DNA of 33,545 nucleotides from Draconibacterium sp. Lineage in GTDB: Bacteria > Bacteroidota > Bacteroidia > Bacteroidales > Prolixibacteraceae. The position numbers and the translations under genes were made by a program. The stretch is taken from positions 1 to 33,545 of the forward strand of contig JAKIST010000003.1 in assembly GCA_021648495.1 (NCBI GenBank). The letters run 5' to 3'. Below the pieces are notes generated by a model, which saw nothing but the letters and a program-made list of their open reading frames with translations, was not told the origin of the DNA and did no database searches. Positions 4,266 through 28,521 of the stretch are shown piece by piece. Each line of letters begins with the position of its first letter. Positions within the stretch are counted from its first letter, which is position 1.

Positions 4266-5951
4266 TCAATAACCTGGATTTTGTACCAAATTATCGTTGA
4301 TTAAAATCTCTTTAGTTGGTATCGGCCATAAATATTGGCGACTAGCGTCAAATTGTCTAATTCCTAATAATTTAATGTAACCATCATTGTACATCGGGTC
4401 GAAATCAGCAACACCATCTTCATCAATTTGAGGTGTTTCTGCAAAAAACCAAAGTCCAGAATCTACAACTTTTGCCTTTAAATCAATTGGATCTAGCATT
4501 CCATAAATATTCGTATTTAATACTTTTTCAGCCAAACCCCAACGAATGATATCCATATAACGCAATCCTTCATATGCAAATTCCATACGTCTTTCCATAC
4601 GAACAATCTTACGTAATTCAGCCTGATCGGTAGAAACAATTGCAGGATAAGAATTAGTATCTTCTTTATCAACACCATAAGCTCTTGCACGAACCATATT
4701 TATTGCATCTAAAACAGTTTGATCAATTTGCCCTAATTCAATACTTGCTTCAGCATACATTAAAAGAACATCGGCATAACGCATTAGAATTCTATCGAAT
4801 TCTGCTTTTCTATCCAGCCAGTCTTCATCAACTTTTTTTCTCCAGACCATCGCATTGTACGAAGCATACTGTTTATTGCTACGTGTATCATTATTATACT
4901 GATATTTGCCCGAATTGAAATTCCAAACCTTTAAAGAATCTGGGTGCGGTTGATATATAAATCCGAGGAAACGACTTTGGAATTCAACAATACTCATTGT
5001 ACAACGAGGATCGCGATTTTTGAAAGGCTCCCTTGGATTAAACAGTGGCGATTCATCAATCGGTAAACCATCGGTACATAAATAGGAACACCACAATTCC
5101 CACGAAGGATTGGATGCACACCATCCACCAGCATTCCTTGTAATTACCATCTTAGTACTACCAGTAAAATACATATTAAGCTCCGCACTTTGGGGTATTG
5201 AAAAAATGGCTTCCTTTGGATTTTTGGTTTTTGATTGGAATAATTCTTCAAAATTTGGATACAATGTATAAATTTCCAAATCCATACAGTCTTCTGCAGC
5301 TTTTCTAGCAATTGAATAATCACCCATATATAAAGCAATTCGTGCTTTCATTGCCAAGGCAGCACCTTTGGTGGCACGTTTTAGTTCGCTACTTCCATAG
5401 CTATCAGGCAAATTGGCTACTGCAAAGTTATAGTCTTCGTAAACTGCTTCTTTTATCGTATTCTTGTTGGTTCTTGAAAGAGTAAAAGACTCATCCAGAT
5501 CCAGCACCTTTGTATAATAGATTACATCGCCCCAATGCGAAATCAAGTAAGCATATTGATATGCCCGAACAAATCTGGCTTCTGCTTCAAAAGCATTATA
5601 AATAGAGGGTGGAAGTTCATCCTTTACTTTTTCGATATTAGCTAAAATTATATTAGCACGAGAAATTACTTTGTAAGTATTTTTCCACAAGGCAGTTAAC
5701 TTACCCCACTCACCGTTTATAGTCCCTCCACTTATTGGAGTTGTATTGTTTCTCTCGGTCCAGTCATCAGTCCAATCATCGCCATCCTGAGGCCAGAAAA
5801 TACCGCGATATAAATCGTTCAATGCCATATTAATTTCACTTTCGTTGGAATACCAAGTAGAACTGGATCCTTCAGAAAGTGGGTTCAAATCCAAATCATT
5901 ACATGCAGTAAAAAATGCAACTGTTGCTATTAGTATGATAATTTTTTTCAT
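4266..5951 (-). CDS. SusD/RagB family nutrient-binding outer membrane lipoprotein
   Basis: Lipoprotein signal (ATVAFFTAC), RanIILANIEKV, EARFVRAYQYAYLISHWGDVIYYT, RMEFAYEGLRYMDIIRWG, C-terminal LWPIPTKEILINDNLVQNPGY. Confidence 0.97.
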   Translation of the reverse strand: MKKIIILIATVAFFTACNDLDLNPLSEGSSSTWYSNESEINMALNDLYRGIFWPQDGDDWTDDWTERNNTTPISGGTINGEWGKLTALWKNTYKVISRANIILANIEKVKDELPPSIYNAFEAEARFVRAYQYAYLISHWGDVIYYTKVLDLDESFTLSRTNKNTIKEAVYEDYNFAVANLPDSYGSSELKRATKGAALAMKARIALYMGDYSIARKAAEDCMDLEIYTLYPNFEELFQSKTKNPKEAIFSIPQSAELNMYFTGSTKMVITRNAGGWCASNPSWELWCSYLCTDGLPIDESPLFNPREPFKNRDPRCTMSIVEFQSRFLGFIYQPHPDSLKVWNFNSGKYQYNNDTRSNKQYASYNAMVWRKKVDEDWLDRKAEFDRILMRYADVLLMYAEASIELGQIDQTVLDAINMVRARAYGVDKEDTNSYPAIVSTDQAELRKIVRMERRMEFAYEGLRYMDIIRWGLAEKVLNTNIYGMLDPIDLKAKVVDSGLWFFAETPQIDEDGVADFDPMYNDGYIKLLGIRQFDASRQYLWPIPTKEILINDNLVQNPGY

Positions 5952-16570: not shown

Positions 16571-17072
16571 TTATAACCCGAACATAATTTTTATACCAAA
16601 TCGAAGATACGAACCGTTGCTAACTGTGTATTTTAATTCAGGGGGCAATAGTCAAACTCTCTCCAGCAGGAATGGATAGTCCAAGCCCCAAATTTACACC
16701 TGCATTTGAGCCTGTTGCCGAACTGCTAAAATCACCATATTCTCCAAAATCTGCATCAATTTTAACTTTGTAAAAAGTCATGTTTAAACCTCCGATGGCG
16801 TACAAGCCACCAATGTTTTCAATTTCGGTAAGTTGGTAATTGGCATCTAAATCCAAGGCCGACCAGTTTACATAATTCTTTTTAAGGAAATAGGTAAATG
16901 CGGGGGCAGCACTCCATTTTTCATTAATTTCGTACTTGCCGTTTACACTAAAACCTACGTTGCTAATGTTGGTTCCATAAACAACACCACCGCCGGCACT
17001 CATTTGTGCACTTGCTTCGGTTACTGCAAAAAAGAGAATAGCTACAAAAAGTGTTTTAAATAAATTTTTCAT
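16571..17072 (-). pseudogene. Outer-membrane beta-barrel protein with apparent frameshift at C5 run (intact ORF part 16638..17072)
   Basis: Signal peptide MKNLFKTLFVAILFFAVTEASAQ and beta-barrel pattern; ORF stops at TIAP*, but removing one C of CCCCC (16641-16645) continues APELKYTVSNGSYLRFGIKIMFGL* to 16571. Confidence 0.75.
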
Positions 17073-26355: not shown

Positions 26356-26700
26356 TTATCCAAGTACGTTTTTTTCAATAAATTTCCAGATTAATTCTTC
26401 CAGCTTTTTTTTATCGGCACCTTTTGAATGTTTGTGTTGTTCGGACAACTCGCTAATTAATTTAATCCTGTTTTTACGGTCAACAATTTCTTTAATAGGA
26501 AAAGCACAAACGGAAGAAACCAGCGTTCCTGAAACGCCAAGCAAACTTTTTAGTCCCTCGGGGAAATGAACAATTTCGAATGAGCTAAGCAAGATGATTA
26601 ATAAACCAATGAAAACAATAAGTACAGCAAATCCAATTCTAAATCGAATCGATGATTTATAAGTTTGAATTATTTGGTCTATGTACAAATCGACATCCAT
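26356..26700 (-). CDS. Small two-TM membrane protein of unknown function
   Basis: Two predicted TM helices (IGFAVLIVFIGLLIILLSSF; LGVSGTLVSSVCAFPI) and charged C-terminal helix; 2 nt from the downstream gene. Confidence 0.7.
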   Translation of the reverse strand: MDVDLYIDQIIQTYKSSIRFRIGFAVLIVFIGLLIILLSSFEIVHFPEGLKSLLGVSGTLVSSVCAFPIKEIVDRKNRIKLISELSEQHKHSKGADKKKLEELIWKFIEKNVLG

Positions 26701-26858
26701 TTCAGTAAGATTGCGTGAAACAATTTACAACAAATAAAAAGGATTAACAAGTATTTTATTGGGTTGAACGATTTTAAACGATGAATTAGTCATTAATTAG
26801 AGCCTGTCAATAAAGTTGTCCATTTTTAAAAGAAGCATCTCCGAAGGGATCTTATGGA

Positions 26859-26960
26859 CAAATAACAAAACTCAAATCACAAATATCAATGTTCAAACCA
26901 GTTTTAAATATTGATATTTCGGTTATTGTGATTTATTTGTATTTTGGTGCTTGTCATTTG
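26859..26960. repeat. Long imperfect inverted repeat in intergenic region
   Basis: Left caaataacaa..aaatcacaa..atatcaatgtt matches reverse complement of right arm caaatgacaa..aatcacaa..aatatcaatatt. Confidence 0.6.
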
Positions 26961-27139
26961 AGATTTTTATTATGTCTTGAATTCAGACTTTACGAGACAA
27001 GAACTAATTCAGCTTGTATCAGTGTGAAACACAAACGATTTAAGTAAATATTCTAATAAATTCGATTTAATAACTCATTTCACCGATAAAAGATTCTAAA
27101 TGATTTTATTACTTTAGCTTCAAATTTAATCACAGCCAA

Positions 27140-27577
27140 GTGGATAGTATTAGCGAACGGCAGAATTTTGCGAAGGAGAATATTACATACAGCAATAATC
27201 GAATTGATCTTCTTTTGATTTCAATTAGTGGTGGCGGAATTTATGTTTGTCTGGAAACCATAAAGTATTTATCAGACAATTGCCGTGATCCTCATTGGTT
27301 GATTTGGGTTTCAGGTGTTGCTTTTCTGTTTACTGTTATAGTAAATTTTATTGGACAGTTTGTGGGCAAAAGAGTTAACGAATTGGATTATATTATGTGC
27401 CAGGAAACAATTGATGCTGGTGACAATCCTACTGCACAACAAGAAGCAGACATAAAGGAAACAGACGAAAAGGCCGACAAAGTTGAAAAATGGATTAACC
27501 CAATTAATTACATATGCACCGGTCTTATGATTACAGGACTTTCCTCAATATTATTCTATTTTATATTAATATTTTAA
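27140..27577 (+). CDS. Small membrane protein of unknown function (GTG start)
   Basis: Two or three hydrophobic segments (LLLISISGGGIYVCL, LIWVSGVAFLFTVIVNFIGQFV, ICTGLMITGLSSILFYFILIF) with charged middle loop. Confidence 0.65.
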   Translation: MDSISERQNFAKENITYSNNRIDLLLISISGGGIYVCLETIKYLSDNCRDPHWLIWVSGVAFLFTVIVNFIGQFVGKRVNELDYIMCQETIDAGDNPTAQQEADIKETDEKADKVEKWINPINYICTGLMITGLSSILFYFILIF

Positions 27578-27711
27578 GTTTTTTTAGGTGGTCTGCCGGA
27601 TACTGTGGAAGGAGAAGGAGATTCCCTTTTTAGCGGTACACCTTTAGGGGTGTATATTGTTGGTCTTGTTTTTGGTGTGGTTACCGGTCTTGATGGTGAT
27701 TTATTAGCCAT
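27574..27711 (-). CDS. Basic micro-protein P1 (45 aa)
   Basis: MANKSPSRPVTTPKTRPTIYTPKGVPLKRESPSPSTVSGRPPKKT*; too short for ORF track; stop overlaps stop of the convergent 27140..27577 gene. Confidence 0.6.
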   Translation of the reverse strand: MANKSPSRPVTTPKTRPTIYTPKGVPLKRESPSPSTVSGRPPKKT

Positions 27712-27725
27712 GATGTTTATTTTTA

Positions 27726-27893
27726 TTATTTTTTAGTTTTAGGTTTTGGTGGTCGTCAGGAAATAAAAACATCTGGGTTCTTATCAAAAGCAGATTCTTT
27801 TGCTAAGCCTTTACTTTGTTCAGCTTTTTTAATTCTCGAATTATCTTTAATTTTTTGAGTACTAATCGGTTTTGATGTTGATTTTTTTGCCAT
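27726..27893 (-). CDS. Basic micro-protein P2 with in-frame TGA at 27756-27758 (conserved tail beyond)
   Basis: MAKKSTSKPISTQKIKDNSRIKKAEQSKGLAKESAFDKNPDVFIS[TGA]RPPKPKTKK**; tail aligns to P1 SGRPPKKT. Confidence 0.5.
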
Positions 27894-27898
27894 AATTT

Positions 27899-28060
27899 TT
27901 ATTTTTTTGGTGGACGGATAGATACACTTCCTTTAACAAATCATCCCGTTTTTGCATCTCTGAGACGAAATTTTCCGGGAGAAGTTTCTTCTCTTTTCCC
28001 TTGCTTTTGTTCTTTAGAAGCAGTTTCACGAGAAGCCGTTCTTTTGGTAGGTTTAGCCAT
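27899..28060 (-). CDS. Basic micro-protein P3 with in-frame TGA at 27941-27943 (conserved tail beyond)
   Basis: MAKPTKRTASRETASKEQKQGKREETSPGKFRLRDAKTG[TGA]FVKGSVSIRPPKK*; distal stop is 5 nt before the P2 ATG. Confidence 0.5.
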
Positions 28061-28079
28061 AATATATTTTATATTGTAC

Positions 28080-28087
28080 CAAATATA
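28080..28087 (-). promoter_or_regulatory. Candidate Bacteroidetes -7 box upstream of the micro-ORF cassette
   Basis: Minus-strand TATATTTG fits TAnnTTTG, about 20 nt before the P3 ATG; -33 box not clear. Confidence 0.35.
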
Positions 28088-28238
28088 GTATGAAAAAGCC
28101 TATTTCGAACTTTGAATCAGTTTTTTTTATTAACCCTGTTGTAAACAGTGAGTTGATAATTAAACCCAGTGTTCATCCATGGGATTAAACTCTGACAAAT
28201 AATACCAACCTGAATAGTGTCGCATATTCAACAACTCG

Positions 28239-28441
28239 CTAAGCGGTTCGAAACCGCTTAGTGATTAGCATTTTCAATTTAGGTTAAGCGGCAAGTTAAA
28301 ATCAAATTGTATAACTAAGGTTTTTGGTGAACTTAAACTACCCCTCGTTTGCAACGAGGGGTAAGCTGAATGTCGTTTTCAACGACAAATATGTGAGTTG
28401 AAAACTTAGAAACATCTAACCCCTCGTTCGGAAACGAGGGG
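28239..28441. repeat. REP-like array of four short-loop palindromes
   Basis: CTAAGCGGTT-CGA-AACCGCTTAG (28239-28261); ACCCCTCGTT-TGC-AACGAGGGGT (28340-28362); TGTCGTT-TTC-AACGACA (28371-28387); CCCCTCGTT-CGGA-AACGAGGGG (28420-28441). Confidence 0.8.
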
Positions 28442-28450
28442 CAGGGGCAG

Positions 28451-28489
28451 AAAAAAACCACCCTCCGACAACTGTCGAAAAGTGGTTCT
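28451..28489 (-). terminator. Intrinsic terminator of the nqr operon
   Basis: Minus strand AACCACttttCGACAgtTGTCGgaggGTGGTTTTTTT, downstream of nqrF. Confidence 0.75.
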
Positions 28490-28521
28490 AATATTTTCTT
28501 TACTAACTACTCAATACTTAT

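What the first reader, a model, noticed from the sequence alone, without database searches (positions are those of the whole stretch)
27574..28060. Tandem cassette of three basic micro-ORFs; two carry an in-frame TGA followed by a conserved RPPK tail
Seen: three unlisted minus-strand ORFs in series, starts MANKSPSRP / MAKKSTSKP / MAKPTKRTAS. C-termini: P1 STVSGRPPKKT*, P2 DVFIS[TGA]RPPKPKTKK**, P3 KTG[TGA]FVKGSVSIRPPKK*. The RPPK tail of P2 and P3 is in frame but beyond a TGA. If the distal stops are the true ends, P3-P2 spacing is 5 nt and P2-P1 spacing is 14 nt (operon-like); if the TGAs are ends, spacing is 47 and 44 nt. In P2 the TGA occupies the position of G (P1) or I (P3) before RPP. 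Inference: either leaky/recoded UGA yielding short and long forms, or two recent nonsense mutations (GGA/CGA to TGA). GRPPKK-like tails are weakly AT-hook-like, so nucleic-acid binding is a guess. TGA does serve as an ordinary stop elsewhere here (susD, nqrB), so a genome-wide code change is not supported.
Basis: partly seen in the sequence, partly recalled or inferred. Interest (0 to 1): 0.72.

Follow-up and report, generated by a model that had tools for sequence, protein, structure and literature searches.

The report
Micro-protein array beside a membrane-protein gene
Three tiny genes next to a membrane-protein gene turn out to be partners in an unlisted two-gene module carried by phages and defence-rich regions of Bacteroidota, but two of the three copies carry a stop signal just before the conserved tail and are probably decaying spares, although read-through is not excluded.

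Summary
In detail: three tandem minus-strand micro-ORFs (P3, P2, P1), of which P2 and P3 have one in-frame TGA before an RPPK tail. The tails are not chance. A profile built only from relatives' tails ranks exactly these three sites first among 26,980 in the window.

P1–P3 have no direct sequence hits, but the overlooked convergent gene at 27140–27577(+), a three-helix membrane protein, does. In 29 other loci its homologues sit beside a micro-ORF. Most of these micro-ORFs end in an RP-type tail. They lie either in tandem, or convergent with overlapping 3' ends as in the window. Prolixibacter has three copies and two Flavobacterium genomes have two. Neighbours include restriction-modification, Septu and SEFIR genes, and several loci are phages. 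No library tested names the module.

None of the relatives' tails lies behind a stop. TGA ends ordinary genes here, no tRNA-Sec or altered tRNA-Trp was seen in congeners, and no structure follows the TGAs. I therefore favour an intact P1 plus two recently truncated paralogues. Programmed UGA read-through remains possible (about 15%). The DNA-binding guess is not supported. A tail-docked membrane effector module for defence or exclusion is my inferred function; nothing here tests it.

The parts
27140..27577 (+). Membrane-protein gene, 145 aa from a GTG start (start tentative); three hydrophobic helices; convergent partner of the micro-ORF array
   Evidence: Homologues in 29 loci beside micro-ORFs; AlphaFold2 pLDDT 90.7, all-helical; hydropathy peaks near residues 22-42, 50-77, 122-145
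27574..27711 (-). P1, intact micro-ORF, 45 aa, tail STVSGRPPKKT; 3' end overlaps the membrane gene's stop by 4 nt, the canonical position in this clade
   Evidence: (top of 26,980 sites with the full tail profile)
27726..27893 (-). P2, micro-ORF frame of 45 aa + TGA + RPPKPKTKK to the distal TAA
   Evidence: tandem duplicate of P1
27756..27758 (-). In-frame TGA of P2 (context TCC TGA CGA); the paralogue P1 has GGC here
27729..27755 (-). P2 tail beyond the TGA (RPPKPKTKK)
   Evidence: Third-best tail-core site in the window
27899..28060 (-). P3, micro-ORF frame of 39 aa + TGA + FVKGSVSIRPPKK to the distal TAA
27941..27943 (-). In-frame TGA of P3 (context GGA TGA TTT)
27902..27940 (-). P3 tail beyond the TGA (FVKGSVSIRPPKK); compare KGSGSGNRP of phage locus L145
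   Evidence: Joint-best tail-core site in the window
28080..28087 (-). Candidate Bacteroidota -7 promoter element TATATTTG, 19 nt upstream of the P3 start codon
   Evidence: Read from sequence; the consensus TAnnTTTG is from general knowledge; not tested

Best explanation
The three ORFs are an array of micro-protein genes belonging to a two-gene module of Bacteroidota and their phages. One gene encodes a membrane protein of about 150 aa with three hydrophobic helices. The other encodes a charged micro-protein of 28-93 aa, probably disordered, whose conserved part is a C-terminal tail around RP. In the window's clade the micro-gene is convergent with, and overlaps, the membrane gene; P1 holds that canonical place and is intact. 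P2 and P3 are extra tandem copies. Their native ends are the distal stops, so each carries one TGA that acts as an ordinary stop and removes the family tail: relatively recent nonsense changes (each one step from CGA or GGA) in spare copies. For the working of the intact module I infer that the tail docks on the cytoplasmic side of the membrane protein and sets its state (oligomerisation or opening), while the variable front part senses or tethers. The module would then be a membrane-acting defence or superinfection-exclusion device. Homology, gene pairing, tail conservation and the positions of the TGAs are shown; truncation in vivo, docking and defence are inferred.
For: Membrane gene plus adjacent micro-ORF in all 29 other loci with enough DNA. 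Convergent 3' overlap in the window's clade (L123, L125, L126, L128, L131, L132, L139, L140). Arrays of three in Prolixibacter (L126) and two in Flavobacterium (L117, L122). Prolixibacter tail codons differ 20 times synonymously and 4 times as K/R only, so the protein tail is under selection. The relatives' tail profile picks out exactly P3, P1 and P2. Distal-stop spacings (5 and 14 nt) fit relatives' arrays (about 3-28 nt from the coordinates); the TGA spacings (47 and 44 nt) do not. TGA terminates 4266-5951, 16638-17072 and nqrB. The tRNA-Sec hits tested are tRNA-Ser. tRNA-Trp of four congeners is canonical. No structure 3' of the TGAs. Neighbours include type IIG and type I restriction-modification, DNA methyltransferases, SEFIR, Septu and KAP genes; phage contigs.
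Against: Two of three copies hit independently, both by TGA, with nothing else damaged and both tails still perfect, is somewhat suspicious for plain decay. The UGA-C context of P2 is a leaky one (general knowledge). The N-termini of P1-P3 have no direct homologues anywhere. P1/P2 front parts show 2 synonymous and 6 nonsynonymous codon differences, so constraint on the front part is not shown. L130 and L142 have variant tails without RP. The defence role rests on neighbourhood only; no enrichment statistic was computed.
Confidence: 0.62

Rival explanations
1. Programmed or leaky UGA read-through: P2 and P3 are made mainly as tail-less short forms with a minor tailed form. This gives a ratio of tailed to tail-less micro-proteins that tunes the membrane protein.
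For: Both tails are intact and in frame after the TGA. Operon spacing fits the distal stops. No frameshift or other stop is present. P2 has the UGA-C context. UGA read-through by tRNA-Trp variants is real in bacteria (PMC13092985).
Against: No other member of the family has a tail behind a stop. P3 has UGA-U. No stimulatory structure downstream (z +0.96 and +1.29). No tRNA-Sec, and canonical tRNA-Trp in four congeners. The window's own tRNA-Trp is not in the MAG.
Confidence: 0.15
2. The cassette came from a genome that reads UGA as an amino acid (Gly in Gracilibacteria/SR1, Trp in mycoplasmas) and has not been adapted.
For: The cassette is absent from the other genomes of the genus at this site.
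Against: Relatives are Bacteroidota and their phages, with standard codons at these places. The phage collection and viral contigs gave no P1-P3 homologue. No other in-frame TGA was seen in the cassette or its partner gene.
Confidence: 0.05
3. The TGAs are assembly errors or minority variants in this metagenome-assembled genome.
For: The genome is fragmented and incomplete (218 contigs, 73.6% complete); reads were not available.
Against: Two single-base differences of the same kind in 190 bp, with all frames otherwise clean, is an unusual error pattern.
Confidence: 0.1
4. The module is a phage lysis (holin-like) or toxin-antitoxin pair rather than a defence device.
For: Small membrane protein with three hydrophobic helices; phage loci, one with a muramidase-like ORF nearby (L131).
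Against: Also found far from phage genes, next to restriction-modification and Septu genes. Membrane protein and micro-protein are always paired, also outside prophages.
Confidence: 0.25

Closest known systems
SLATT-domain membrane effectors (NCBIfam NF033634, SLATT_1)
   Same: Small membrane protein in conflict-system neighbourhoods; three of 25 members give weak hits (best E 9.7e-5).
   Different: Scores are far below the curated cut-off (for example 19.1 against 41 bits) and two members match different parts of the model. No RP-tailed micro-protein is part of the SLATT definition as I know it.
Pycsar PycTM effectors (PADLOC PDLC02364)
   Same: Small multi-helix membrane protein; one of 25 members hits at E 0.0024.
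   Different: No nucleotide cyclase was identified among the neighbours examined; the hit is weak and single.
AT-hook micro-proteins
   Same: GRPPKK of P1 superficially resembles a GRP core.
   Different: The tail in half of the family is GRPxDERPxKDD with an acidic end; the partner is a membrane protein.
Bacterial selenoprotein or UGA-recoded genes
   Same: In-frame UGA followed by conserved sequence.
   Different: No SECIS-like structure, no tRNA-Sec found, no conserved UGA in relatives.

Membership tests
Two-gene module found here (membrane protein + RP-tailed micro-protein) | Membrane protein with signature Y(S/A)xxR(I/F)D(L/I/V)L(I/L)IS(I/L)S | tested here: met
   Window: YSNNRIDLLLISIS
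Two-gene module found here (membrane protein + RP-tailed micro-protein) | Micro-ORF adjacent, tandem or convergent with 3' overlap | tested here: met
   P1 overlaps the membrane gene's stop by 4 nt; relatives about 8-23 nt
Two-gene module found here (membrane protein + RP-tailed micro-protein) | Intact RP-type C-terminal tail | tested here: inconclusive
   P1 met. P2 and P3 have the tail only beyond a TGA
SLATT_1 (NF033634) | Score above the curated cut-off of 41 bits | tested here: not met
   Window protein no hit; members scored individually reach 19.1 and 17.1 bits
Pfam, PHROGs and PDB families | Significant profile or fold match | tested here: not met
   Foldseek has no match at E <= 0.001
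Anti-phage defence system | Protects cells from phage when expressed | not testable with these tools
   Only neighbourhood evidence
Selenoprotein | tRNA-Sec in the lineage and SECIS element after UGA | tested here: not met
   The five over-cut-off tRNA-Sec hits in the genus are tRNA-Ser(UGA); no structure 3' of the TGAs. The MAG itself is incomplete.
UGA-reassigned genetic code | UGA not used as stop | tested here: not met
   TGA terminates three genes in the window, including nqrB
UGA read-through by altered tRNA-Trp | 4-bp anticodon stem, A9C or G24A tRNA-Trp | tested here: inconclusive
   Four congeners have identical canonical tRNA-Trp; the window's own gene is not in the MAG

The most novel reading that the evidence does not exclude
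A new two-gene membrane module in which copy number and UGA read-through of tail-bearing micro-proteins set the ratio of tailed to tail-less partners. This would be regulated termination used as a dosage switch in a Bacteroidota conflict system.
Probability: 0.12. Interest if true: 0.85.

Novelty: new variant of a known kind. Interest (0 to 1): 0.55.

Why it matters
The finding led to a conserved, widely spread gene pair whose small member is easily missed by gene callers and which none of the protein, defence or phage family libraries tested here lists. It sits beside restriction-modification, Septu and SEFIR genes and on phage contigs, so it is a concrete candidate for a new membrane-acting defence or exclusion module. 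It offers a clear anatomical rule (RP tail, tandem or convergent overlap, occasional arrays) for finding more. The window copy is also a natural test of whether the tail is essential, because two of its three copies would lose it.

Tried and rejected
Direct homologues of P1-P3: none in the genomes sampled from family, order and phylum, viral contigs, species genomes, phages or plasmids. Apparent hits such as LRDAKTGRF in phage proteins (L026, L027) and the weak family hits are chance motifs. Orthologous site after nqrF in congeners: no cassette. Selenocysteine: rejected. Genome-wide recoding: rejected. AT-hook reading: rejected. Fold comparison of the membrane protein: nothing significant. Literature searches found no description of the pair in the held library.

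Full report
WHAT IS THERE. The three minus-strand micro-ORFs are exactly as described. P3 is MAKPTKRTASRETASKEQKQGKREETSPGKFRLRDAKTG[TGA]FVKGSVSIRPPKK. P2 is MAKKSTSKPISTQKIKDNSRIKKAEQSKGLAKESAFDKNPDVFIS[TGA]RPPKPKTKK. P1 is MANKSPSRPVTTPKTRPTIYTPKGVPLKRESPSPSTVSGRPPKKT. P1 and P2 share a 56-nt stretch (79% identity) around their starts at a spacing of 182 nt, so the cassette grew by tandem duplication.

THE TAILS ARE NOT CHANCE. Among 3,396 six-frame stops in the window only the two TGAs of P2 and P3 are followed by a short open stretch containing RPP[KR]. Shuffles give 2.8e-4 and 7e-5. The RPPK codons differ only synonymously between the three copies (AGA/CGA/CGT, CCT/CCA).

FINDING THE FAMILY. 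P1-P3 themselves gave no homologue in any collection, and the site after nqrF holds other genes in congeners. The convergent membrane protein was the way in. Its homologue in G112 (Prolixibacter bellariivorans ATCC BAA-1284, identified) faces three convergent micro-ORFs ending GSPNDSGSRPKK, GSPNDSGSRPRK and GSPNDSGSRPKR. Its homologue in G044 (Maribellus sediminis, same genus as the window) is followed by a micro-ORF ending GRPTDERPTKDD. Profile searches brought the total to 29 other loci with enough flanking DNA, and every one has a micro-ORF beside the membrane gene. Three more loci (L114, L121, L127) end too soon to tell.

TWO ARCHITECTURES. Clade A (FDILIISLS): micro-ORF on the same strand, mostly within 13 nt downstream, tail GRPxDERPxKDD or KGxGSGxRPKRD. 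Clade B (RIDLLIISISGAG, the window's clade): micro-ORF convergent, 3' ends overlapping by about 8-23 nt, tail GVxRPPKK, GGGRPPAKK or similar. Arrays occur in the window (three), Prolixibacter (three) and two Flavobacterium genomes (two each). Exceptions: L130 has no RP, L142 has a DP variant, L115 is cut by the contig end, and the end of the L124 micro-ORF was not resolved. In Prolixibacter the three tails differ by 20 synonymous and 4 K/R codon differences, which shows selection on the protein tail.

AN INDEPENDENT TEST. A tail-core profile built from relatives only, without the window, was scanned over 26,980 six-frame sites near stops. The three best are the P3, P1 and P2 tails (15.2, 15.2, 14.5); the next is 9.9. 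With all 11 columns P1 is first and P3 thirteenth; P2 is not among the listed sites, so upstream similarity of P2 and P3 to the relatives is weak.

WHAT THE TGAS ARE. The distal stops look like the native ends: spacings of 5 and 14 nt resemble relatives' arrays, those from the TGAs (47 and 44 nt) do not. No relative has a tail behind a stop, although looked for tails irrespective of preceding stops. TGA ends 4266-5951, 16638-17072 and nqrB. The five over-threshold tRNA-Sec hits in the genus are tRNA-Ser. tRNA-Trp of four congeners has a canonical 5-bp anticodon stem with A9 and G24, unlike the read-through variants discussed in PMC13092985. No stable structure follows the TGAs. Both TGAs are one step from CGA (Arg) or GGA (Gly). 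I therefore favour recent truncation of spare copies with P1 left intact. Two hits by the same stop with perfect tails, and the UGA-C context in P2, keep read-through alive at about 15%. The MAG is 73.6% complete with only 10 tRNAs found, so a local suppressor tRNA cannot be excluded.

HOW IT MAY WORK. The membrane protein is predicted with confidence as an all-helical protein (pLDDT 90.7; helices 2-20, 24-46, 53-93, 99-144) with three hydrophobic stretches. It has no Pfam, PHROG or PDB relative and no significant fold match; weak, sub-threshold resemblance to SLATT_1 and PycTM exists. Neighbours include type IIG restriction-modification directly upstream (L110, L118, L120), type I restriction-modification (L111), cytosine methyltransferases (L108, L125), SEFIR proteins (L122), PtuA/PtuB of Septu (L107) and a KAP NTPase (L110). 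Five loci are viral-collection contigs. I infer a membrane-acting defence or exclusion module in which the micro-protein tail docks on the membrane protein. Holin-like or toxin-antitoxin readings remain open, and no enrichment statistic was computed.

VERDICT. Observation confirmed; interpretation partly supported; the larger result is an unlisted two-gene module.

Noticed in passing
28211-28316: Dispersed intergenic element: 96% identical over 107 nt to a contig of congener G048 and found at 77-93% in several other contigs of the same MAG (L074-L076); it contains an AAGCGGTTTCGAACCGCTT palindrome that is missing from one copy.
   Followed up: partly
28338-28444: Paired inverted repeats CCCCTCGTT...AACGAGGGG, present as many intergenic-type copies across the genus; REP-like.
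   Followed up: partly
26700-28521: The region downstream of nqrF is occupied by different genes in nearly every congener, so it looks like a variable cargo site.
   Followed up: partly
L131:2520-4490: On a phage contig the membrane protein/micro-ORF pair lies about 900 nt downstream of a muramidase-like ORF, which bears on a lysis-related reading.
   Followed up: no
L125:4461-4646: The micro-protein of Bacteroidetes bacterium UKL13-3 has a (KPTP)n repeat front part, showing how freely the front part varies while the tail stays.
   Followed up: no
27941-28060: The P3 front part carries LRDAKTG, a motif that also turns up in unrelated phage proteins (L026, L027), where the next residue is Arg.
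   Followed up: partly
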